64,000 bases of DNA, taken from Conchocele bisecta. Taxonomy: Eukaryota; Mollusca; Bivalvia; Lucinida; Thyasiridae. The stretch's first letter is position 1. Every line of letters starts with the position of its first letter. The position numbers and the translations under genes were made by a program. The DNA lies in NCBI GenBank assembly GCA_029237695.1, contig CM055265.1, forward strand, positions 78,238,447 through 78,302,446. Reading direction: 5' to 3'. Of the stretch, positions 4,287 through 51,991 are shown piece after piece. The notes below the pieces were generated by a model. It saw only the letters and a list, made by a program, of their open reading frames with translations. It ran no database searches and was not told the DNA's origin.

Positions 4287-4527
4287 GGGCCGTTTCACTA
4301 AACTTTGTAAGACTAAAATGTTCGTAAGTACAAAATTATGATAGTTTGTAAATATCATATTAACATTGTTTTCCTGTAAACAATTGTTGGATTTACATTT
4401 CTTGAGCATAGGCTGCATATGCAGCCAATGCTCAATAAATGTAAATCCATCAATTGAAATTTCCTGACGATTCTAAAATTGCGCTTACGAACATTTTAGT
4501 CGTACAATGTTTAGTGAAACGGGCCCC
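4287..4527. repeat. Family C (PIF/Harbinger-like) MITE, full copy
   Basis: The termini GGGCCGTTTCACTAAAC and GTTTAGTGAAACGGGCCC are inverted repeats. The centre is the perfect turn GCATAGGCTGCATATGCAGCC. CTG-type words flank both sides, consistent with a 3-bp duplication. Confidence 0.75.
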
Positions 4528-6265: not shown

Positions 6266-6667
6266 AAAGAGTTGTTTTCTAAATGCTCTAGCACATGTTT
6301 ATAGCTGGCAGGCTCCGAAAAAATCTAACAAATGGTCTGGTCATGATCTACAACTGTTGAAAATGTCCTTAGGTTAGTTTTCTCAACTGGTAGCCCACAT
6401 GTAACTATTATTTTCTTATTCACCTAAATTGCTTGGCCCTAAATGATACTCTTTTGTGTTGATGGGCCGTTAAGCACCATTCCATTCCCACATGTACCTT
6501 CAGAAATACCTCAGAATAATGTACCCAGTTTACTTTACAAATTTTTGTGACTTTGTATAGGCATTGTCATTATATATATTCAACTGAAATTTCAAACTGA
6601 AAATAATTGTTTTTTACTGACATTCAACAGTTTTTACGCTGATGGAAATTTACTCCTATTAAAAATG
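6266..6667. other. Intronic filler with SINE-tail remnant
   Basis: No gene. A decayed SINE-like tail (TGTTGATGGGCCGTTAAGCA) is at about 6455-6478. The rest is AT-rich and unassigned. Confidence 0.3.
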
Positions 6668-6859
6668 TTTTGCACGGTAAATGTGCCAGTTTTTCAATGT
6701 TTTACACGCTAAATGTTCCCCTTTTTCTATGTTTTACATGCTAAATGTTCCCCTTTTTCAATGTTTTAAATGCTAAATGTTCCCCTTTTTCAATGTTTTA
6801 CACGCTAAATGTTCCCATTTTTCAATGTTTTACATGCTAAATGTGCCCTTTTTTTTAGC
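6668..6859. repeat. 32-bp minisatellite, six units
   Basis: The unit contains TTTTACACGCTAAATGTTCC followed by CCTTTTTCAATG. Six units occur in register, differing by single bases such as CACGC/CATGC and TTCCCC/TGCCC. Confidence 0.8.
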
Positions 6860-7295: not shown

Positions 7296-7369
7296 TTAAC
7301 CCCTTACACCGCTATCTTAATTTTGTTGTTGTCTGCTGTTTATTTTCTATTTTCCATTTTTATCATCAC
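7296..7369. repeat. Left part of family A MITE split by retrotransposon
   Basis: TTAACCCCTTACACCGCTAT through TTTTTATCATCAC is the left arm of a family A element. Its right arm resumes at 16761, after the LTR retrotransposon. The last five bases, ATCAC, are the target duplication. Confidence 0.85.
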
Positions 7370-9891
7370 TGTCAAGGTCATTACCAAGGTCAGGAATGAT
7401 CGAGACAAATTGTCTCCCCCAATTATCATATGAACCAAGTATACTTCAATTGTTATGACGTTATGGCCAATATAGCTTGATCTGACGAACGAAAAGTGGT
7501 AACAATGCAGTTGAAGTGTAAGGGATAGGCCAGAGTAGATAAGTACACGTAGTCACTTAATCACTTATAATGTACACTATATTACATGGGGAACACACAG
7601 GAATACATGATACATTGATATGCGAACATCACTGTACTGTGCATGATACTATTCAATTACTACAAGGTTGTAAGCCAATCGACTGTTATACTTTAACGCA
7701 ACTTAAAAGCTACAGACGAATAAACTCGGTATGTGGTATCTCAATGGTCCCGTAGTGGACAATAGTATGAATGCACAAGTACTTTGATGATCGCTAATCA
7801 AAGTGAAATAACATACAAGTATAACATGGCATAACGAACATTGGAAGACAAATGACAATCATCTGAGCTACCCCAGTGCTGGCGTATCTCAATAGATAGT
7901 GTAACCTCTGAGTATCAAGGTCCCAAGGTCTGCCTCACCCGCAATATGAGGTCTAGTCAACAATATGGCTATAATCCAACTTCAAGTGGATTAATCCATA
8001 AACAATATATGTAGTCTTACTACAATCCTTTAGCCATGATATGCCATGATAGGAGTATTACCATACACTATCAAAGTATACATATGTATTGCCTATGCAA
8101 TATATTTCCAAAGTATGAATGTCAAAGTCAAAGCCGGATGTGGTTACATCACATGATAGTCAATAACGATAATGTTCCGGAAGCTGGTTCCCGGAAGTAA
8201 AGTTCCACAGGTAGTGTTATCTCCGGAAATGGTGGACCAGATGTAAAGTTCCTATGGTATCACTCGACTGTAGCAACCCGGATGTGGTAGACCGGATGTA
8301 AAGTATCCATGGTGAATCAATGGGTTGTAATACCAAGAGTGGTAGACCGGATGTAAAGTTCCGATATAATACAAAATGGCGATTTTCACGTTGGCTAAGA
8401 CGCCGGGAAAAGTTTCACTTAGGTGACATTCAACTCGGTGGTAGTATAATGATATGATATGTGTGTATGGCGTTTCACTTCACTAAACTATGGCTGTGAC
8501 TGTCTGCTGAACGCGAGGTAGCTATCACACACTGCTCTATACAGGCCTGTACCCGGAGCTGCTACACACACTGCGCCAGACAGACGTACGGACACTCGGA
8601 CGACCCGATACTCTGCACTGACTGGGGTCTGCCCTCAAACGAGTGGACCAAAACGTCCAATGTGGCTCGCTGGAGCGTTCTCAAGAGGCTACAAAAATGA
8701 AATGAATCTCCAATTACTGGACGAATACGCACAGACAGACAGACAGGATGCACAACAGACTAAAACGGGAATCGAACAACGGCAAATCACAGCTGAAATA
8801 AAATGTTCTAGGTACATACCAAAATCCTCCGTGTCACTGGTGAATACAGTACTAGTCTTCTGTAACCAGAATATATGTGTCCCGCCAACACATAGCGAGA
8901 CATCGCTTATATACGCACCAGTGAAACCATGCACGGAATAATGGATATGCCTACCCCTCGTACGACATCTCACATAAATACTACAAAACCATGGCTTTTG
9001 CCATGTCACCCGTGGGTTATTTTTGGCATAAATATATGTTCCCACGCCTTAAATTCAACCAAACCAGTGTACAGCCCTCGTGGAATAAATACCATCCAAC
9101 ATGGTATACCCCACACTACCATAAATCTGCACACTGTAGACCCAGATCTCATAATCCGAAATCTACTCGACTGGTCTCGACAATGCAAAGGTCGCTTCTT
9201 GGCCCCGCCAAACCCCTCCATAACGGTCCTACGGCTATACACTCAAATGAGAGTGTAGCACATACTAAACTCAAATATCGTGGTCATTTACGGAAATATC
9301 ACGACACAAAACATCACCATTATGGGATCTGATATATCCGTGTTGGCCAGTACCAGGCTATGATGAAACACTAACCCGTAGCATACATAACAGGGCAGAC
9401 CATGGTATGGTCTGCGCTGTATACTGGCTTCACCTACAGAAGGTCCCTTATATGGTGAAACACTGACACGCGGACAAACTCGGCTGGCACGGACAGTGGA
9501 CATCCGTAATACTAAAAGGTATCTTTTCCCTAGCGAAACCAGCACACGAGTTCTCTACCACACACATGCATAGTCTGTGGCAAATATGGCGTGACCTCAG
9601 TAAAACATTGCTCATAAAATAGACGTATATTTAAATCCGCAAATAGGACACGCATAAACGTATCTCCACCAATACAACATAAGCCCCCTTATTACACGCA
9701 CATTGTACATGGCAAATGTACATGCCAAACCACAGGTGTGCAAAAACCACAGGTGTGTGAAACCACAGGTATGTGGAATCACAGGGATGTGAAATCAATA
9801 ATATGCACAACAATACAACACAGTACCACACATCACAAATATACAATTATACGGATTCCAGAATGTACAAGAATACACGTGTCACGCGACA
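7370..9891 (-). repeat. 3' LTR of the retrotransposon
   Basis: 2522 bases. In element orientation it begins TGTCGCGTGACAC and ends CCTTGACA. It differs from the other LTR by a handful of substitutions and by small indels, including TATGTTCCC against TAATTATGTTCCC near 9035, and a missing six-base CAGTCA-type insert near 9550. The small ORFs inside it occur in both LTRs only because the sequence is duplicated; I see no coding signal. It is unusually long for an LTR. Confidence 0.93.
8177..8366. repeat. Imperfect tandem repeat inside 3' LTR
   Basis: About four units of roughly 50 bases, each with a form of GGTAGACCGGATGTAAAGTT. The same array is at 15034-15227 in the other LTR. Arrays like this in LTRs often act as enhancers; that role is an inference here. 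Confidence 0.6.
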
Positions 9892-9903
9892 TATCTCCCC
9901 CCT
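9892..9903 (-). promoter_or_regulatory. Polypurine tract for plus-strand priming
   Basis: Directly next to the inner edge of the 3' LTR. On the - strand it reads AGGGGGGAGATA and then the LTR start TGTCGCG. The position and purine run are as expected for the second-strand primer of an LTR element. Confidence 0.75.
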
Positions 9904-9961
9904 AAACAAAAAGTGTTTACACTTTCGTGCATAATCGCGAGACACGTTGGCACAGCTGAAT

Positions 9962-10544
9962 CTACCCCGATATCCTGCTCAGGTGGTCTGCCCCCAGATT
10001 GTCGGCCTCTTTTATCGCAACAATACGCATTCTGGCTGACTGTTCCCCTGACCTTAAATGGGATAGGGTACCCCTTAATTCTTAAAGGGTCTTGCGTTGA
10101 CAACTTTATCTCATGTTTCCCTATATGGGTGTGTCCTGGTGCGTCCCTCAGGACATGGGTGAACTCCCGTAAGATCTCTTTGACTTGCGTCTTTTGTTTC
10201 TTGCCTAAATCAGGCGACATGTCAACTTTGCTCTCCGTATCGGACTCTAATCCCCTGGGACATAACATGTTTTCTTCGGCACTACACCCACTTGGACTAG
10301 GATCCCCCTCTACTGTGTCTTCTATCACGGCCGCATTTATTACAGTGAGTATTCCCTTCCCCGGGTGCTCAGGCCTAGTCTCGTACCTCTTTAACATGTT
10401 TGCATGAAAGGTTTTCAACTTCCCTCCCATGTCAACTCTATAGTCCCACTCATTAACTACCTCTGTTATGGGGTATGGTCCCTTCCACCTAAGAAGCAAT
10501 TTGTTGTTGTCTGTCGGTAGTAGTACAAGTACCTGATCTGCCAT
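9962..10544 (-). pseudogene. pol 3' part: GPY/F, RT start, RNase H end
   Basis: The open frame from 10544 starts just before the integrase C-terminal GPY/F module (LRWKGPYPITEVV). It continues into a segment typical of the extreme N-terminus of a gypsy RT, with REFTHVLRDAPGHT, HEIKLS and YPIPFKVRGTV. Around 10020-10055 this similarity stops. From there a different frame reads NLGADHLSRISG and then a stop at 9962-9964, which resembles the C-terminal end of RNase H. I infer one internal deletion of the whole RT-RNase H catalytic core: no YxDD motif or RNase H active-site residues are present. The frame preceding 10544 is broken from the integrase ORF. The product cannot be functional. Confidence 0.8.
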
Positions 10545-10565
10545 GCATACTGCCTACTACGAGTC

Positions 10566-12680
10566 TTACGGTTGTAGTACTTTGCATACTTTTTGGACGC
10601 ACTCTTCAAGTTCTCTCTGCGCGATTTCGCACGTTTTCTCGAGCCGTTCGCGCAAGTCTAGGACGTACTGATACGTCGTTTTGACGTTGTCCTCTATGTC
10701 CTTTTCGGACCACAGATCTCTTAGTATGCTCATCGGACCTCGAACGGTCCTTCCGTACAATAGTTCAAACGGTGAGAAAGCCAAACTTTCTTGAGGGACT
10801 TCGCGATACGCGAATAAAAGCGCGTTAATGTATTTGTCCCAATCTTTGGGACGTTCGCTTGCCATTCTACGAAGCATTTGCTTTAACGTACCATTGAACC
10901 GTTCCACGAGACCGTTACACTGTGGGTGGTACGGTGTCGTGGTTAATTGTCTCAGCGATAACAATCTACTAACTTCCTCCATGACTGCCGACGTAAATTG
11001 ACTACCCCGATCGGTGAGCATCTCCTCGGGGATACCCAGTCTACTGAACATATCCACGAGAGCTTCCGCGACTCGTTCGGCCTCGATGCCTGGTAGTGGT
11101 ACCGCTTCTGGGTACCTAGTTGCATAATCAACTAACGTTAGTATGTAACGATTCTTCCGATCGGTAGCTGGAAAAATTGGCCCTACAATATCAACTGCGA
11201 CTCGTTTGAACGGAGTGTCTATCAACGGCATAGTTCCTAACGGAACCTTGGTGATGTGTCCCTTTGACACAGTCTTTTGACATATGTCACAAGACCTACA
11301 AAACCGTGTAATGTCACTGCCCACGCCTGGCCAATAAAATTCTGATAACACTCGATCAGTTGTCTTCTTAACCCCTAAATGGCCCGCCATGATTGATTCA
11401 TGTGCCACTTTCATCACGGTAGTCCTAAGTGTTTTTGGGACTACCAGCTGATGGTACATCCTACCTGACCCTATCGATTCGAAATTACGATACAACAAGT
11501 CTTTTCGGTATGCGAATTTCGATTTGTTTCCGTTCTTACTTGACCGTACCGTTCCGTCTTTTGCATTATTTCGAACTGACGTCAATGTGACGTCATGTGC
11601 CTGCGCCTCTTTGAATTCATCGCGTGATACGTTCGCGATTGCGGTAGGGACTTTGAGGGTCTTATAGGATTCGTCTCGGGCTGTCGTTTGTGACCTAGTT
11701 TCAACTGCGCACGATTTAGCGCCTCTAAAATCGGATATCACCGGTAACTCTGACCCGTCTACATTCCCTATGGTAACATCATACATTGTATCTGTCATGC
11801 AAAGGGCTTCTACCTTACCTTTGAAAAAAGGTGTATCTAGATCTACCCGGGCGGTAGGAATTCCACTCATTTTGCTCCTATTTACCAGCATGCATGTTGA
11901 AACTTTGCTTAAAAACTGATCTGGTTGTACTAAGCTTTCCCTGACGACCACCCCGGTACACCCAGTATCTCGCATTACTGTGACCTTTTTCCCATTTAAT
12001 GTGCCCTCTGCTACGGGTAGCCTATCCATACCAAATGTACATCCGTTAATCAACTCCGGCTGTATCTCGCTACCTGAACATACAATAGTGGTGTCGGTAT
12101 CAACCACACAGAAATGTCCTTGGTTTTCCCCTGGTTGTTCCGTGTTTTGCCATCTACCTCTACCTCTGCCTCTAGTGTGCCTTCCACTTCTACCTCTATT
12201 TCTACCTCTGTACCGACCGCTCTGTTCTTTATCTGCAAAACTTACATGTTTCTCTTCCTCGACTGCTGCTGCTTTGTAAGCTGAGGACCGGTCACGCTTA
12301 GGACAATCGTAGGACATGTGACCTTCTTTGCCACAATGGTAACATGTCCCGCGATGCCTATCATAGCCGTTCCTGCTGGTACTTCTATCATAACTACCTC
12401 TACTCGGGCTTCTATCATAACTACCCCTACTTGGGCTTCTATTGTGGTCTCTATTCTGATATCTGTCCCTATCTCGACTCCTATCTCTGGATCGATTATC
12501 CGCACTACTTACCTTGCGCCTCTGGTTATCTACTGACCTGTACTCAGTTCTGTTGCTAGTACTGTTCCTCTGAACTACATACTTGCTACCTCCTCTAGCT
12601 TCTGCAAAGTAATCTGCCTGAACCGCCATCTGATCTAATCGAGTCAAATGTTTTCTCTTTGAGAAATAAGTAGAGCTCAC
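10566..12680 (-). CDS. gag zinc knuckle, protease and integrase ORF
   Basis: 704 codons. The first 110 residues are the gag C-terminus: a short helical part, then an Arg/Ser/Asp-rich tract. A nucleocapsid knuckle CYHCGKEGHMSYDC is at 113-126 and an RG-rich run (RGRGRGR) near 170. An aspartic protease follows with the active-site triplet DTG at 238-240. Integrase then follows directly, with no RT between: the zinc-binding motif has H427, H434, C464 and C467, and the catalytic core has D497 (VDIVGP), D557 (LTDRGSQF) and E593 (NGLVERFNG), a DD35E arrangement. The ORF ends early: near 10620 the similarity passes into another frame, which restores KKYAKYYNRKTRSR and leads toward the GPY/F module. 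The start codon is not native, since gag sequence continues upstream in other frames. The gag-protease-integrase fusion in one frame is as expected for gypsy elements; the missing RT between them is the notable point. Confidence 0.9.
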   Translation of the reverse strand: MSSTYFSKRKHLTRLDQMAVQADYFAEARGGSKYVVQRNSTSNRTEYRSVDNQRRKVSSADNRSRDRSRDRDRYQNRDHNRSPSRGSYDRSPSRGSYDRSTSRNGYDRHRGTCYHCGKEGHMSYDCPKRDRSSAYKAAAVEEEKHVSFADKEQSGRYRGRNRGRSGRHTRGRGRGRWQNTEQPGENQGHFCVVDTDTTIVCSGSEIQPELINGCTFGMDRLPVAEGTLNGKKVTVMRDTGCTGVVVRESLVQPDQFLSKVSTCMLVNRSKMSGIPTARVDLDTPFFKGKVEALCMTDTMYDVTIGNVDGSELPVISDFRGAKSCAVETRSQTTARDESYKTLKVPTAIANVSRDEFKEAQAHDVTLTSVRNNAKDGTVRSSKNGNKSKFAYRKDLLYRNFESIGSGRMYHQLVVPKTLRTTVMKVAHESIMAGHLGVKKTTDRVLSEFYWPGVGSDITRFCRSCDICQKTVSKGHITKVPLGTMPLIDTPFKRVAVDIVGPIFPATDRKNRYILTLVDYATRYPEAVPLPGIEAERVAEALVDMFSRLGIPEEMLTDRGSQFTSAVMEEVSRLLSLRQLTTTPYHPQCNGLVERFNGTLKQMLRRMASERPKDWDKYINALLFAYREVPQESLAFSPFELLYGRTVRGPMSILRDLWSEKDIEDNVKTTYQYVLDLRERLEKTCEIAQRELEECVQKVCKVLQP

Positions 12681-13130
12681 GACTGCATATACTTAACATC
12701 TGATCTCTATCATGTAGTCTAATACTCCTTCATATGTTCTATTCACCTTACCTAACTCAAACCATCTATCTAAATAGTTCTTTGACCGACTGACATATTG
12801 CACAAATGATTCACTGTGATCAGGTTTGGTGTTTTTGAACATGCGTCTGAACCCATCTTCCGTTAGATCAAAACATTTCAACAATGCGGATTTCAACTTA
12901 TCATAGTCAAGAGCATCATCAATAGGTAGTCTAGAATATACATCTAATGCCTTGCCCTTCAATAAAGCACTCAAGTGTAGTGACCACTTATCTCTACCCC
13001 ACCTTTGAATTGCTGCGTACCTCTCAAATCTAGCTAAGTAGCTATCCATGTTGTCATTATTCTGATCAAAATGTGGCAGCTTCGGACCGAATGCTCTGCC
13101 ATAGTCCCTATCATGTCTATCTTCATCTAC
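12681..13130 (-). pseudogene. gag capsid region, frame-broken
   Basis: The open part (12693-13049) carries a retrotransposon gag domain: SYLARFERYAAIQRW, WSLHLSALLKGKALDVYSRL and FVQYVSRSKNYLDRWF are typical helices. Reading continues upstream in the same frame to about 13125 (YGRAFGPKLPHFDQ). At the downstream end the frame breaks twice within about 60 bases (around 12700 and 12650) before the knuckle-containing ORF resumes. Another break near 13130 separates it from the coiled-coil part. The capsid forms the particle shell in which reverse transcription takes place. Confidence 0.8.
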
Positions 13131-13572
13131 TACTTCTCCCCTCTACTTTTGCCATTTCTACCTGATGCTTAGTGTCGAGTTCTCGCAATTTAAATTCTAG
13201 ATCTAACTGTGCTTCATTGGCTAACCGATGTGCTTCCTTATCTAACCGCGCAGCATCTAATCTATCTTTCTCCATCTGTCGCTCAACTTCCTTAGCTAAC
13301 TGCTCAGCATCTAACCTATCTTTCTCAGCCTGTCACTCAACCTCCTTAGCTAACCGCTCAGCATCTAACCTATCTTTCTCAGCCTGTCGCTCAACCTCTT
13401 TAGCCAACCGCTCAGCATCTAACCTATCTTTCTCAGCCTGCCTAGCCTCTAGTCTTTCCTGTCTTTCTCTCTCCTGCTCTTCCTTTACAAAGGCCCTTAA
13501 CTCTGAATCTGCTAGCCCTAAGCTTTTGCCTATGTCCATTAGCTCCTTAATGGACGACATTCTCACTCTCAA
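13131..13572 (-). pseudogene. gag N-terminal coiled coil with stop
   Basis: Begins with a short helix (SSIKELMDIGKSLGLADSEL) followed by a long charged coiled coil. The 18-residue unit AEKDRLDAERLAKEVERQ is repeated about four times. An in-frame TGA at about 13330, where sister units have an Arg codon (CGA), truncates it after 79 codons. The coiled coil carries on beyond the stop to about 13150. Such N-termini are usual in gag of animal gypsy elements. Confidence 0.75.
13259..13440 (-). repeat. 54-bp tandem repeat within gag
   Basis: Three to four in-register units, each containing CTCAGCATCTAACCTATCTT on the + strand. They code the 18-residue coiled-coil unit, so copy number can change without shifting frame. 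Confidence 0.8.
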
Positions 13573-14210
13573 ATCAACTCCGGATTATCGATTTACACGC
13601 TTTACCCGACGGTACACAAGGTCTCTAGCACTCAAATCACTTGGTGATTTGTGCGAGTCTCTTGCTTCAAGTCTATAAGGTTAAGGTAAATCAATCCGGT
13701 CTCTACTCTAACGACGGTATAAGTTTCTCAATCGGGTAAGTCAATCCGGTATATGTATAGTCTAATGTAATGGTATATTTACCATTCCCTCTCTAAGGTA
13801 CTGGACACAAATATTGGGGACTGGTTATAGACACCTGGCAGGATATAGTATTGTTCATACACAATATAATAGTGGTAGTAATCTCGCCTCAGATGCAGAA
13901 GTGTCTAGTGCTAACCTAGAACACCCGCTGTGCCATCATCACAGGGAGGTACTATTCAACAAATCCAAGGTTACAATGACCCTTACATCCACTATCTCAC
14001 CAGATCGTCTCAACTCTATACTTCTGTACCTAGGTAGTCAAATCATGTATGTGGTGATGTATTAGTGCCTAAGTGTTGGAGTGCATCTTACATTAACTCC
14101 CAAGGCAAACAAATACAAGATTGAATTTTTGACGACACTAGGGGTACAGCTATTCTAGCCTCCTTACTTCAACTGCTTTGAAGAAACTGATTATAAAAGA
14201 GGAAACAAAA
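13573..14210 (-). other. Retrotransposon leader (5' untranslated)
   Basis: Lies between primer site and gag. No long ORF on the element's strand. It would hold the packaging signal if the element is mobilised in trans. Confidence 0.55.
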
Positions 14211-14227
14211 CCCCACTTCTGACACCA
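14211..14227 (-). promoter_or_regulatory. Primer-binding site, tRNA-Leu type
   Basis: On the - strand, one base inside the 5' LTR, the sequence is TGGTGTCAGAAGTGGGG. Its complement on the + strand, CCCCACTTCTGACACCA, matches the 3' end of animal tRNA-Leu acceptors (CCCACT-CTGACACCA) from memory of the tRNA consensus. This sets the priming tRNA and confirms the element's orientation. Confidence 0.85.
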
Positions 14228-14228
14228 T

Positions 14229-16760
14229 TGTCAAGGTCATTACCAAGGTCAGGAATGATCGAGACAAATTGTCTCCCCAATTATCATATGAACCAAGTAT
14301 ACTTCAATTGTTATGACGTTATGGCCAATATAGCTTGATCTGACGAACGAAAAGTGGTAACAATGCAGTTGAAGTGTAAGGGATAGGCCAGCGTAGATAA
14401 GTACACGTAGTCACTTAATCACTTATAATGTACACTATATTACATGGGGAACACACAGGAATACATGATACATTGATATGCGAACATCACTGTACTGTGC
14501 ATGATACTATTCAATTACTACAAGGTTGTAAGCCAATCGACTGTTATACTTTAACGCAACTTAAAAGCTACAGACGAATAAACTCGGTATGTGGTATCTC
14601 AATGGTCCCGTAGTGGACAATAGTATGAATGCACAAGTACTTTGATGATCGCTAATCAAAGTGAAATAACATACAGTATAACATGGCATAACGAACATTG
14701 GAAGACAAATGACAATCATCTGAGCTACCCCAGTGCTGGCGTATCTCAATAGATAGTGTAACCTCTGAGTATCAAGGTCCCAAGGTCTGCCTCACCCGCA
14801 ATATGAGGTCTAGTCAACAATATGGCTATAATCCAACTTCAAGTGGATTAATCCATAAACAATATATGTAGTCTTACTACAATCCTTTAGCCATGATATG
14901 CCATGATAGGAGTATTACCATACACTATCAAAGTATACATATGTATTGCCTATGCAATATATTTCCAAAGTATGAATGTCAAAGTCAAAGCCGGATGTGG
15001 TTACATCACATGATAGTCAATAACGATAATGTTCCGGAAGCTGGTTCCCGGAAGTAAAGTTCCACAGGTAGTGTTATCTCCGGAAATGGTGGACCAGATG
15101 TAAAGTTCCTATGGTATCACTCGACTGTAGCACCCGGATGTGGTAGACCGGATGTAAAGTATCCATGGTGAATCAATGGGTTGTAATACCGGAAGTGGTA
15201 GACCGGTATGTAAAGTTCCGATATAATACAAAATGGCGATTTTCACGTTGGCTAAGACGCCGGGAAAAGTTTCACTTAGGTGACATTCAACTCGGTGGTA
15301 GTATAATGATATGATATGTGTGTATGGCGTTTCACTTCACTAAACTATGGCTGTGACTGTCTGCTGAACGCGAGGTAGCTATCACACACTGCTCTATACA
15401 GGCCTGTACCCGGAGCTGCTACACACACTGCGCCAGACAGACGTACGGACACTCGGACGACCCGATACTCTGCACTGACTGGGGTCTGCCCTCAAACGAG
15501 TGGACCAAAACGTCCAATGTGGCTCGCTGGAGCGTTCTCAAGAGGCTACAAAAATGAAATGAATCTCCAATTACTGGACGAATACGCACAGACAGACAGA
15601 CAGGATGCACAACAGACTAAAACGGGAATCGAACAACGGCAAATCACAGCTGAAATAAAATGTTCTAGGTACATACCAAAATCCTCCGTGTCACTGGTGA
15701 ATACAGTACTAGTCTTCTGTAACCAGAATATATGTGTCCCGCCAACACATAGCGAGACATCGCTTATATACGCACCAGTGAAACCATGCACGGAATAATG
15801 GATATGCCTACCCCTCGTACGACATCTCACATAAATACTACAAAACCATGGCTTTTGCCATGTCACCCGTGGGTTATTTTTGGCATAAATATAATTATGT
15901 TCCCACGCCTTAAATTCAACCAAACCAGTGTACAGCCCTCGTGGAATAAATACCATCCAACATGGTATACCCCACACTACCATAAATCTGCACACTGTAG
16001 ACCCAGATCTCATAATCCGAAATCTACTCGACTGGTCTCGACAATGCGAAGGTCGCTTCTTGGCCCCGCCAAACCCCTCCATAACGGTCCTACGGCTATA
16101 CACTCAAATGAGAGTGTAGCACATACTAAACTCAAATATCGTGGTCATTTACGGAAATATCACGACACAAAACATCACCATTATGGGATCTGATATATCC
16201 GTGTTGGCCAGTACCAGGCTATGATGAAACACTAACCCGTAGCATACATAACAGGGCAGACCATGGTATGGTCTGCGCTGTATACTGGCTTCACCTACAG
16301 AAGGTCCCTTATATGGTGAAACACTGACACGCGGACAAACTCGGCTGGCACGGACAGTGGACATCCGTAATACTAAAAGGTATCTTTCCCTAGCGAAACC
16401 AGCACACGCAGTCAACGAGTTCTCTACCACACACATGCATAGTCTGTGGCAAATATGGCGTGACCTCAGTAAAACATTGCTCATAAAATAGACGTATATT
16501 TAAATCCGCAAATAGGACACGCATAAACGTATCTCCACCAATACAACATAAGCCCCCTTATTACACGCACATTGTACATGGCAAATGTACATGCCAAACC
16601 ACAGGTGTGCAAAAACCACAGGTGTGTGAAACCACAGGTATGTGGAATCACAGGGATGTGAAATCAATAATACGCACAACAATACAACACAGTACCACAC
16701 ATCACAAATATACAATTATACGGATTCCAGAATGTACAAGAATACACGTGTCACGCGACA
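14229..16760 (-). repeat. 5' LTR of the retrotransposon
   Basis: 2532 bases, containing the element's promoter by position. It shares all landmarks with the other LTR. Compared with that copy it has TACCGGAAGTGG instead of TACCAAGAGTGG near 15190 and an extra CAGTCA-type insert near 16410. Confidence 0.93.
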
Positions 16761-16942
16761 ATCACAAACCTGCTTTGACAGCACTTTAGAATAATTTACA
16801 ACATGCTTTGACAATACCTCAGAATCATTTCCATTGGAAATGATTCTGAAGTGCTGTCAAATCATGTTTTTTATTGAGAAATAAGGCAAGATATAAAAGC
16901 AACAGCAGACGACAATTGTTGTGTGTAGGGGTCTAAGGATTA
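16761..16942. repeat. Right part of split family A MITE
   Basis: After the duplicated ATCAC the sequence resumes with CTGCTTTGACAGCACTTTAG, the TTTCCATTGGAAATG turn and AGCAGACGACAATTGTTG. The final flank has decayed to AAGGATTA instead of AGGGTTAA. Confidence 0.85.
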
Positions 16943-17775: not shown

Positions 17776-18009
17776 TTAACCCTTACACCGCTACACACAG
17801 CAATTGTCGTCTGCTGTTGCTTTTATATCAATACAAACATGTTTTGACAGCACTGCAGAATCATTTCCAATGGAAATGATTCTGAAGTGCTGTCAAAGCA
17901 TGTTGTAAATTATTCTAAAGTGCTGTCAAAGCATGTTTTTGATGATAAAATGGAAAATAGAAAATAAACAGCAGACGACAAAAAATTAAGGTAGTGGTCT
18001 AAGGGTTAA
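17776..18009. repeat. TTAA-flanked MITE, family A
   Basis: TTAACCCTTACACCGCTACA at left, GTGGTCTAAGGGTTAA at right, with the TTTCCAATGGAAATG centre. Confidence 0.8.
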
Positions 18010-18091: not shown

Positions 18092-18337
18092 TTAACCCTT
18101 ACACCGCTATCTTAATTGTTTTGTCATCTGCTGTTTATTTTCTATTTTACATTTTTATCATCAAAAACATGCTTTGACAGCACTTTAGAATAATTTACAA
18201 CCTGCTTTGACAGCACTTCAGAATCATTTCCATTGGAAATGATTCTGAAGTGCTGTCAAACCATGTTTTTATTAAGAAATAAGGCAAGATATAAAAGCAA
18301 CAGCAGACGTGTTGTGAGTAAGCGGTCTAAGAGTTAA
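18092..18337. repeat. TTAA-flanked MITE, family A
   Basis: TTAACCCTTACACCGCTATC at left and AGCGGTCTAAGAGTTAA at right. Opposite arm order to the copy 80 bases upstream, so the pair forms a larger inverted repeat. Confidence 0.8.
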
Positions 18338-19215: not shown

Positions 19216-19512
19216 TTAACCCTTTCAACACTACAGATCATGGGCCCGTTTCACTAAACTTCTTACGACTAAAATGTTCGTAAGTGCAAATTTATGATAG
19301 TCTGTAAATTTCACATTAACAATGTTTTCTTGTAAATAATTATTGGATTTACATTTATTGAGCATAGGCTGCATATGCAGCCTATGCTCAATAAATGTAA
19401 ATCCATAAATTGAAATTTACAGACGATCTTAAATTTGCACTTACGAACATTTTAGTCGTAAGTAGTTTAGTGAAACGGCCCCCATGATCTTGCAAACAGT
19501 GTAGATCCAGAT
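19216..19512. repeat. Family B fragment interrupted by family C
   Basis: Left TTAACCCTTTCAACACTACA and, after the family C element, TTGCAAACAGTGTAGATCCA. The rest of the family B element is missing. Confidence 0.6.
19242..19483. repeat. Family C MITE nested in family B
   Basis: GGCCCGTTTCACTAAACTTC to GTTTAGTGAAACGGCCCC with the GCATATGC centre. ATG flanks both sides, giving a 3-bp duplication as at 61742. Confidence 0.75.
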
Positions 19513-22829: not shown

Positions 22830-23085
22830 TTAACCCTTTCAACACTACAGACCTGTATAGTGATATTGGCAAACAGTGTAGACCCAGATGGGATCATCTG
22901 GAGTTTTCAATTGATGGATTTACATTTATTGAGCATAGGCTGCATATGCAGCCTATGCTCAATAAATATAAATCCGATAATTCCTTACAAGAAAACATTG
23001 TCAATGTGCAATTTTCAGACTATCATAATTTTGCACTTGATTGGTTGCAAAACTAACATATCAAAATCCATTCCAGTTACATAGG
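22830..23085. repeat. Family B MITE with family C inside
   Basis: TTAACCCTTTCAACACTACA and GGCAAACAGTGTAGACCCAG are the left arm. A family C middle part (22909-23039) replaces the core, and GGTTGCAAAACTAACATATC resumes family B. Confidence 0.65.
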
Positions 23086-26218: not shown

Positions 26219-26468
26219 TTAACCCTTAGACCGCTACACACAACAATTGTCGTCTGCTGTTGCTTTTATATCTTGTCTTATTTCTCAATAAAAATATGGT
26301 TCGACAGCACTTCAGAATCATTTCCAATGGAAATGATTCTCAAGTGCTGTCAAACCATGTTGTAAATTATTCTAAAGTGCTGTCAAAGCATGTTTTCGAT
26401 GATAAAACTGGAAAATAGAAAATAAACAGTAGACGACAACAAAATTAAGATAGCGGTGTAAGGGTTAA
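26219..26468. repeat. TTAA-flanked MITE, family A
   Basis: TTAACCCTTAGACCGCTACA to AGCGGTGTAAGGGTTAA; the two terminal repeats are still well paired. Confidence 0.8.
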
Positions 26469-32458: not shown

Positions 32459-32701
32459 TTAACCCTTTGACCGCTATCATATTTTTTTTGTCGCCTGCTG
32501 TTTATTTTCTATTTTCCATTTTTATCATCAAAAACATGCTTTAACAGCACTTTAGAATAATTTACAACATGCTTTGACAGCACTTCAAAATCATTTCCAT
32601 TGGAAATGATTCTAAAGTGCTGTCAAACCATGTTTTTATTGAGAAATAAGGCAAGATATAAAAGCAACAGCAGACGACAATTGTTGTGTGTGTAGGGTTA
32701 A
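32459..32701. repeat. TTAA-flanked MITE, family A
   Basis: TTAACCCTTTGACCGCTATC to TGTGTGTAGGGTTAA. Confidence 0.8.
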
Positions 32702-34138: not shown

Positions 34139-34375
34139 ATTAAATCTTATTTTATTTGTCGTCTGCTGTTTATTTTCTATTTTCAATTTTTATCATCAAA
34201 AACATGCTTTGACAACACTAGAATAATTTACAACATGCTTTGACAGCACGTCAGAATCATTTCCATTGGAAATGATTCTGAAATGCTGTCAAAACATGTT
34301 TTTATTGAGAAATAAGGCTTGATATAAAAGCAACAGCAGACGACAATTGTTGTGAGTAGCAAGGACTATTAGCAT
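34139..34375. repeat. Family A MITE, ends decayed
   Basis: GTCGTCTGCTGTTTATTTTC, the TTTCCATTGGAAATG turn and AGCAGACGACAATTGTTG are clear. The outer CCCTT/TTAA parts are lost. Confidence 0.65.
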
Positions 34376-39328: not shown

Positions 39329-39432
39329 TGTTTTGTTTGTTTGTTTGTTTGTTTGTTTGTTTGTTTGTTTGTTTGTTTGTTTGTTTGTTTGTTTGTTTGT
39401 TTGTTTGTTTGTTTGTTTGTTTGTTTGTTTGA
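39329..39432. repeat. (TTTG)n microsatellite
   Basis: About 25 uninterrupted TTTG units. The - strand Thr-Asn-Lys-Gln ORF across it is an artefact. Confidence 0.95.
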
Positions 39433-45024: not shown

Positions 45025-45274
45025 TTAACCCTTAGACCGCTACACACAACAATTGTCGTCTGCTGTTGCTTTTATATCTTTCCTTATTTCTCAATAAAAA
45101 CATGGTTTGACAACACTTCAGAATCATTTCCAATGGAAATGATTCTGAAGTGCTGTCAAACCATGTTGTAAATTATTCTAAAGTGCTGTCAAAGCATGTT
45201 TTTGATGATACAAATGGAAAATAGAAAATAAACAGCAGACGACATAAACATTAAGATAGTGATATAAGGGTTAA
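45025..45274. repeat. TTAA-flanked MITE, family A
   Basis: TTAACCCTTAGACCGCTACA to AGTGATATAAGGGTTAA. Confidence 0.8.
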
Positions 45275-51757: not shown

Positions 51758-51991
51758 TTAACCCTTACACCACTATCTTAATTTTTTGTCGTCTGCTATT
51801 TATTTTCTATTTGCCATTTTCATCATCAAAAACATGGTTTGACAGCACTTAAGAATAATTAACAACATGGTTCGACAGCACTTCAGAATCATTTCCAATG
51901 TGCTGTCAAACCATGTTTTTATTGAGAAATAAGGCAAGATATAAAAGCAACAGCAGACGACAATTGTTGCGAGTAGTGGTCTAAGGGTTAA
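51758..51991. repeat. TTAA-flanked MITE, family A
   Basis: TTAACCCTTACACCACTATC to AGTGGTCTAAGGGTTAA; the central turn is partly deleted (TTTCCAATGTGCTGTC). Confidence 0.75.

What the first reader, a model, noticed from the sequence alone, without database searches (positions are those of the whole stretch)
9962..12680. gypsy element with integrase upstream of reverse transcriptase
On the - strand the order is knuckle, protease DTG, integrase HHCC and DD35E, GPY/F, then RT N-terminal edge and RNase H end. Normal Ty3/gypsy order has RT and RNase H before integrase. The copia-like order within Ty3/gypsy is known for Gmr1-like elements, described mainly from deuterostomes; a lophotrochozoan member with 2.5-kb LTRs would extend the group. 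The domain order is seen directly; clade membership is inference, because the RT needed for phylogeny is deleted.
Basis: partly seen in the sequence, partly recalled or inferred. Interest (0 to 1): 0.75.

Follow-up and report, generated by a model that had tools for sequence, protein, structure and literature searches.

The report
Jumping gene with reversed enzyme order
This is a recently inserted retrotransposon of a known but unusual animal group, in which the integrase comes before the reverse transcriptase; it has lost its reverse transcriptase, yet many copies with the same loss lie scattered in this genome beside copies that still have it.

Summary
Observation confirmed. On the - strand lies a young LTR retrotransposon (7370-16760): 2.5-kb LTRs (6 substitutions in 2518), a 5-bp target duplication, and the order knuckle, protease, integrase, GPY/F, RT start, RNase H end. 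The order is not a rearrangement: a copy in the same genome carries an open RT+RNase H frame behind its integrase. Of the 40 closest integrase matches scored, 15 keep RT there and 25 show one of two RT deletions. An unnamed 1471-aa Gag-Pol protein, 97-100% identical upstream of RT, reads integrase-RT-RNase H.

In RT and integrase trees the sampled integrase-first elements form one branch. A SCAN-like capsid, which a review ties to Gmr1-like elements, appears in 27 of 33 scanned. So: a Gmr1-like element, probably from a bivalve. Crustacean and annelid members are in print, so "extends the group" is outdated.

New here: the window copy is an RT-less derivative. Its exact deletion recurs at 129 places, a second at 180, against 165 with RT. 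Sampled RT-less copies often have their own target duplications, and share integrase variants with RT-bearing copies. They most likely spread with RT borrowed from these.

The parts
7370..9891 (-). 3' LTR
   Evidence: 2522 bp; 6 substitutions and 7 gaps in 2518 aligned bases against the 5' LTR; TG...CA ends
14229..16760 (-). 5' LTR
   Evidence: 2532 bp
7365..7369 (.). target-site duplication, left copy (ATCAC)
16761..16765 (.). target-site duplication, right copy (ATCAC)
   Evidence: the joined flanks align through the join to other copies of the interrupted repeat
14210..14227 (-). primer-binding site, one base inside the 5' LTR (begins TGG); likeness to a tRNA-Leu 3' end is recalled, not tested
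   Evidence: sequence printed
9892..9906 (-). polypurine tract next to the 3' LTR
   Evidence: sequence printed
13235..13440 (-). 54-bp tandem repeat (3.8 copies) inside the Gag N-terminal part, coding a charged repeat, probably coiled coil (inferred)
12693..13142 (-). Gag capsid ORF piece (149 aa)
   Evidence: Retrotrans_gag 3e-5; residues 1-145 are 100% identical to Gag-Pol protein P0135
12594..12851 (-). region corresponding to the SCAN-like stretch of P0135 (residues 132-217), interrupted here by a frame break
   Evidence: SCAN in P0135 E 7.6e-4, below Pfam's cut-off; placed through the alignment, so inferred; the window's own pieces gave no SCAN match
10566..12692 (-). ORF of 708 aa: zinc knuckle, protease, integrase
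   Evidence: 97% identical to P0135 over 695 aa
11940..11978 (-). aspartic protease DTG motif
   Evidence: Pfam match below cut-off
10890..11402 (-). integrase HHCC zinc-binding domain and DD35E core
9882..10553 (-). ORF of 223 aa: integrase C-terminal GPY/F (10458-10499), linker, RT N-terminal edge (10038-10112), then out-of-frame tail
   Evidence: 96.5% identical to P0135 over 172 aa
10031..10032 (-). deletion junction A: about 1135 bp of RT and RNase H missing here
   Evidence: comparison with RT-bearing stretch L009; the junction is found at 129 places in the genome
9965..10030 (-). C-terminal end of RNase H, in a shifted frame
   Evidence: corresponds to the RNase H end of L009 and P0135

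Best explanation
The element is a Ty3/gypsy LTR retrotransposon of the Gmr1-like kind, whose polyprotein runs Gag-protease-integrase-RT-RNase H (shown in relatives; integrase followed by RT shown in RT-bearing copies of the same genome). The window copy belongs to a non-autonomous subtype: a deletion of about 1.1 kb removed most of RT and RNase H but left LTRs, primer-binding site, polypurine tract and the Gag, protease and integrase regions. Copies with this deletion, and with a second, larger one, inserted as units with their own target-site duplications (shown for sampled copies). The missing RT is most likely supplied by RT-bearing copies of the same family whose RNA shares the particle (inferred). 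Integrase variants shared between RT-less and RT-bearing copies fit template switching between co-packaged RNAs (inferred).
For: Order: L009 (part of the copy seen in L003) has one open RT-RNase H frame directly behind the integrase. P0135 shows integrase 602-774, RT 1096-1254, RNase H to 1448. Against Ty3 Gag-Pol (7q5b_A) the blocks are swapped: relative P0011's RT (810-1239) at Ty3 584-1008, its integrase (373-733) at Ty3 1088-1449. Clade: RT tree of 82 rows, the 51 integrase-first ones on one branch, support 98/98, 99% of 200 bootstrap trees. Integrase tree of 75 rows, the same split, SH-aLRT 99, the window's own integrase beside P0135. SCAN match at E 0.01 or better in 27 of 33 integrase-first proteins (33 of the 50 tree representatives, picked for length), 0 of 4 standard-order controls. 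Spread: junction A 129 places, junction B 180, intact RT start 165, reversed-pattern controls 0 each. Of the 40 closest integrase matches 12 A, 13 B, 15 RT-bearing. Matching 5-bp duplications: the window, 4 of 10 sampled A, 4 of 10 sampled RT-bearing, 2 of 3 sampled B. LTR divergence: window 0.24%, A 0.37-2.74% (7 of 10 measurable), RT-bearing 0.35-1.98% (8 of 10 measurable). Recombination: of 40 variants present in 3 or more of 37 copies, 30 occur in both classes. Alleles private to A are 5 of 6 within about 70 bp of the junction, 4 of 33 farther off (Fisher p 0.0012).
Against: No named Gmr1 sequence was available, so clade membership rests on order, the two trees and the SCAN mark. The standard-order rows come from one pseudoscorpion genome plus two grass proteins, so other gypsy clades were hardly sampled, and the tree program warned of long branches, in the integrase tree also of long branches meeting. 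The 4 SCAN controls all come from that one genome. P0135's own SCAN match is below Pfam's cut-off; how many of the 27 pass it was not counted. Borrowed RT was not observed. In 6 of 10 A and 6 of 10 RT-bearing samples no matching duplication was found: an LTR end was missing from the fetched stretch, the copy lay in tandem, or the flanks differed; LTR pairs in tandem arrays may not date one insertion. Junction counts are places, not independent insertions, since some lie in tandem, and allow 2 mismatches in 31 bases, so old copies are missed. The RT-bearing sample was taken from exact matches beside the junction, which may exaggerate A-private alleles there; one site inside the pattern was left out for that reason. 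The copy tree shows no clustering by class but has no starred branch.
Confidence: 0.85

Rival explanations
1. The apparent order is a rearrangement: a normal Ty3/gypsy element (RT before integrase) whose RT scrap was moved behind the integrase.
For: In the window itself only short RT and RNase H remnants are seen behind the integrase.
Against: L009 carries an open RT-RNase H frame behind the integrase; 15 of the 40 closest copies have RT there and none had another arrangement downstream; 138 of 238 protein relatives are integrase-first and 2 RT-first.
Confidence: 0.01
2. A gypsy clade other than Gmr1 (for example Cigr-1 or one of the mollusc MolGy clades) that has the swapped order on its own account or by kinship with Gmr1.
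For: No named reference was in the trees. The mollusc survey names six known gypsy clades found in molluscs, Cigr-1 among them and Gmr1 not (PMC6238403, passages and Table 1); the annelid paper says that the Gmr1 clade includes elements from cod and the tunicate Ciona (PMC8220671, passage), so Cigr-1, recalled as a Ciona element, may be close kin.
Against: All sampled integrase-first rows, echinoderm ones included, form one branch in both trees; 27 of 33 match SCAN, a domain that a review derives from a Gmr1-like element (PMC3406341, passage).
Confidence: 0.1
3. The RT-less copies are not mobile as such: each lost RT after insertion, or they were multiplied by segmental duplication or LTR-LTR recombination.
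For: Some copies lie in tandem: five type-B junctions about 6.6 kb apart on C12, and copies whose outer flank is the element's own tract or primer site (L014, L024, L126/L127).
Against: The same junction recurs at 129 places and the second at 180, on many contigs; sampled copies with matching duplications have different flanks.
Confidence: 0.04
4. The variants shared between RT-less and RT-bearing copies come from gene conversion between chromosomal copies, or from repeated deletion at the same bases, not from template switching in particles.
For: Gene conversion would give the same pattern; the class label is unclustered on the copy tree (13 changes, shuffled mean 13.6).
Against: Repeated deletion at identical bases with about 1 bp of overlap is unlikely for 129 places. 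Gene conversion is not excluded by any search.
Confidence: 0.25

Closest known systems
Gmr1-like Ty3/gypsy elements (Gmr1 of cod; LGF3 of Lamellibrachia; GyRex4/5 and Saugg1)
   Same: Integrase upstream of RT in a gypsy element; SCAN-like capsid in most relatives scanned; protostome and annelid members are in print.
   Different: Host is probably a bivalve (inferred from named relatives); LTRs of 2.5 kb; this copy lacks RT and RNase H. In the listings of the gmr1 searches (one search listed 20 of 27 papers) and the passages opened, I saw no report of a mollusc clade under the name Gmr1; a mollusc Cigr-1 clade is reported (PMC6238403) and may be kin.
[quoted passage not shown]
   Same: Defective copies outnumber competent ones, are assumed to be trans-complemented, and recombine with competent ones except close to the defect boundary.
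   Different: Those D-type elements lack functional genes; here the Gag, protease and integrase regions remain and RT and most of RNase H are gone. No new insertion was observed here.
Ty1/copia elements
   Same: Order protease-integrase-RT-RNase H.
   Different: The best solved relative of RT and integrase is Ty3 Gag-Pol, and the integrase has a GPY/F-type C-terminus.

Membership tests
Ty3/gypsy | RT and integrase of the Ty3 type | tested here: met
   Best solved-structure match of P0135 is Ty3 Gag-Pol, 5e-102; same for P0011
Gmr1-like | Integrase upstream of RT | tested here: met
Gmr1-like | RT groups with named Gmr1 elements | not testable with these tools
   No named Gmr1 sequence at hand; the sampled integrase-first rows, deuterostome ones included, form one branch
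Gmr1-like | Gag capsid related to the SCAN domain (PMC3406341, passage) | tested here: inconclusive
   27 of 33 relatives match SCAN at E 0.01 or better, 0 of 4 controls from one genome; the family's own P0135 matches below Pfam's cut-off; the window's broken pieces did not match
Ty1/copia | copia-type RT | tested here: not met
   RT best matches Ty3 among solved structures
Non-autonomous LTR retrotransposon | Lacks an essential enzyme but has transposed | tested here: met
   RT/RNase H deletion shared at 129 places; own target duplications in the window copy and 4 of 10 sampled copies
Non-autonomous LTR retrotransposon | Helped in trans by an RT-bearing partner | not testable with these tools
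   Inferred from 165 RT-bearing places and shared variants

The most novel reading that the evidence does not exclude
The swapped order itself makes a half-autonomous element possible. With integrase before RT, a deletion of the 3' part of pol leaves one continuous Gag-protease-integrase frame. The two RT-less subtypes, together more numerous than RT-bearing copies among recent junctions, would still make their own capsid, protease and integrase and borrow only RT, recombining steadily with RT-bearing copies.
Probability: 0.25. Interest if true: 0.55.

Novelty: new member of a known kind. Interest (0 to 1): 0.4.

Why it matters
It gives a large, young family in which a gypsy element with copia-like order can be studied with RT-bearing copies at hand. 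It suggests that integrase-first elements are common in bivalves, which a mollusc survey did not report under the name Gmr1. The coexistence of 309 RT-less and 165 RT-bearing recent junctions in one genome makes competition and recombination between defective and RT-bearing copies testable outside mammals.

Tried and rejected
Rejected: rearrangement, copia membership, local loss or duplication as the main source of RT-less copies.

Test of whether the RT-less subtype keeps its integrase under selection: variants shared by 2 or more copies are mostly synonymous in both classes (A 22 synonymous to 6 non-synonymous, RT-bearing 14 to 2), private ones are not (56 to 112 and 37 to 60; neutral expectation about 2.4-2.9 non-synonymous per synonymous), from 18 A and 18 RT-bearing copies. 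But most shared variants occur in both classes, and those private to A are 5 to 3, not different from singletons (p 0.13). So this does not decide the novel case. Open integrase frames over 413 codons: 4 of 20 A (the window copy among them), 2 of 20 RT-bearing. Many small indels occur in the copies; decay or assembly error is not settled. A first version of this count used a reference stretch that ran past the window's own frame break; it was redone over a shorter stretch. Rows dropped from the variant counts: three copies that did not align (L055, L076, L077), and the window copy itself (L051) in the variant counts.

Tree rows: of 118 integrase-first and 14 RT-first proteins kept, 50 and 5 remained after removal of near-copies. 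The standard-order set was then remade from 157 units, 31 after removal. Fourteen pseudoscorpion predictions looked integrase-first by best hit; I read them as fused gene models, and counted units only where integrase followed RT closely and no integrase lay just upstream, a rule that would also hide a true integrase-first unit there. The host was not identified; 'bivalve' rests on named relatives only. The total number of family copies was not obtained.

Full report
What is there. The window holds, on the - strand at 7370-16760, an LTR-to-LTR element flanked by the 5-bp duplication ATCAC. The LTRs differ by 6 substitutions in 2518 aligned bases, so the insertion is recent. It sits inside an interspersed repeat: the joined flanks align through the join to at least nine other copies of that repeat in the window at 81-92% identity, the empty-site form.

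Is the order real? Yes. The copy behind L003 continues past the window's deletion point. The stretch L009 from the same copy has one open frame from the RT start to the RNase H end, directly behind the integrase. The window lacks about 1135 bp of it. A database protein, P0135 (1471 aa, no name, on a 5441-base contig), matches the window's Gag piece at 100%, the 708-aa ORF at 97% and the next ORF at 96.5%, and L009's RT-RNase H at 99%. Pfam places its integrase at 602-774 and RT at 1096-1254. Compared with Ty3 Gag-Pol, the RT and integrase blocks of relative P0011 lie in opposite order. Of 238 relatives listed (capped lists of 120 each), 138 are integrase-first, 97 show integrase only, 2 are RT-first (a grass and a pseudoscorpion protein) and 1 shows RT only. 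Named relatives come from bivalves, a gastropod, a nemertean and echinoderms; the nemertean protein's order was not established.

Clade. In an RT-RNase H tree of 82 rows the 51 integrase-first rows lie on one side of one branch (98/98; 99% of 200 bootstrap trees), with L009 beside P0135. An integrase tree of 75 rows gives the same split (SH-aLRT 99) and places the window's own integrase beside P0135. The program flagged long standard-order branches in both trees and long branches meeting in the second. The standard-order rows are one pseudoscorpion genome's families plus two grass proteins, so the test is one-sided. A review states that the SCAN domain came from the capsid of a Gmr1-like retrotransposon (PMC3406341, passage; the original paper is not held). 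P0135's own SCAN match is weak.

What is in print. Gmr1 as a gypsy clade with integrase upstream of RT is established (PMC6238403 and PMC8220671, passages). Crustacean members were called the first in protostomes (PMC3587641, passages). The annelid Lamellibrachia has a Gmr1 family (PMC8220671, passages), and Gmr1 is named among five gypsy clades present in several phyla (PMC8556966, passages). The mollusc survey PMC6238403 holds the word Gmr1 once, in its background, and its Table 1 lists no Gmr1 clade but does list Cigr-1. Because the annelid paper counts a Ciona element in the Gmr1 clade and I recall Cigr-1 as a Ciona element, a related mollusc clade may already be in print under that name. 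In the gmr1 searches (20 of 27 papers listed) I saw no mollusc clade reported as Gmr1; subscription journals are mostly not in that library. The relatives found here suggest that such elements are common in bivalves.

How it spreads. The window copy's deletion junction occurs at 129 places (up to 2 mismatches in 31 bases), a second, larger deletion at 180, the intact RT start at 165, with no hits for the reversed patterns. These are places, some of them in tandem. Of the 40 closest integrase matches scored (of 954 candidates) 12 are type A, 13 type B and 15 RT-bearing. Besides the window, 4 of 10 sampled type A copies and 4 of 10 RT-bearing ones have matching 5-bp duplications, as do 2 of 3 type B. 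The rest lacked an LTR end in the fetched stretch, lay in tandem, or did not match. The six type A flanks printed differ from each other and from the window's. LTR divergence overlaps between classes. RT-less copies therefore transposed, which needs RT from elsewhere; [quoted passage not shown] Of 40 variants found in 3 or more of 37 copies, 30 occur in both classes, and alleles private to type A crowd near the junction, as in the cattle ERVK case, where defective and competent elements recombine (PMC10924933, passages). One site inside the search pattern was left out of that comparison, because the sampling fixed it in RT-bearing copies.

Verdict. The additional finding is that RT-less derivatives that keep the integrase region outnumber RT-bearing copies among recent junctions. 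Whether they still supply Gag, protease and integrase is open: the selection test was not decisive.

Noticed in passing
window 16767-16830, 17874-17937, 18166-18229, 26331-26394, 32533-32596, 34201-34262, 45137-45200, 51831-51893: An interspersed repeat with an internal 33-bp duplication recurs through the window on both strands; the retrotransposon is inserted into one copy.
   Followed up: partly
window 4382-4455, 19338-19411, 22909-22982: Near-palindromic elements of about 74 nt, possibly small non-autonomous DNA transposons.
   Followed up: no
window 13235-13440: 54-bp tandem repeat within Gag; the alignments hint that its copy number varies between copies.
   Followed up: no
window 6664-6854 and 39332-39431: A 32-bp tandem repeat (6 copies) just outside the element and a (TTTG)25 microsatellite.
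   Followed up: no
G000:C12:60505617-60532037: Five type-B junctions about 6.6 kb apart, as expected of a tandem array of elements sharing LTRs.
   Followed up: partly
P0106, P0123, P0124, P0234: Retrotransposon proteins of this kind filed under bacterial symbiont MAGs (Sedimenticola, Thiodiazotropha); most likely host DNA left in the assemblies.
   Followed up: no
L084 and several other copies: Some copies carry many one-base indels in the integrase region; decay or assembly error, unexplained.
   Followed up: no
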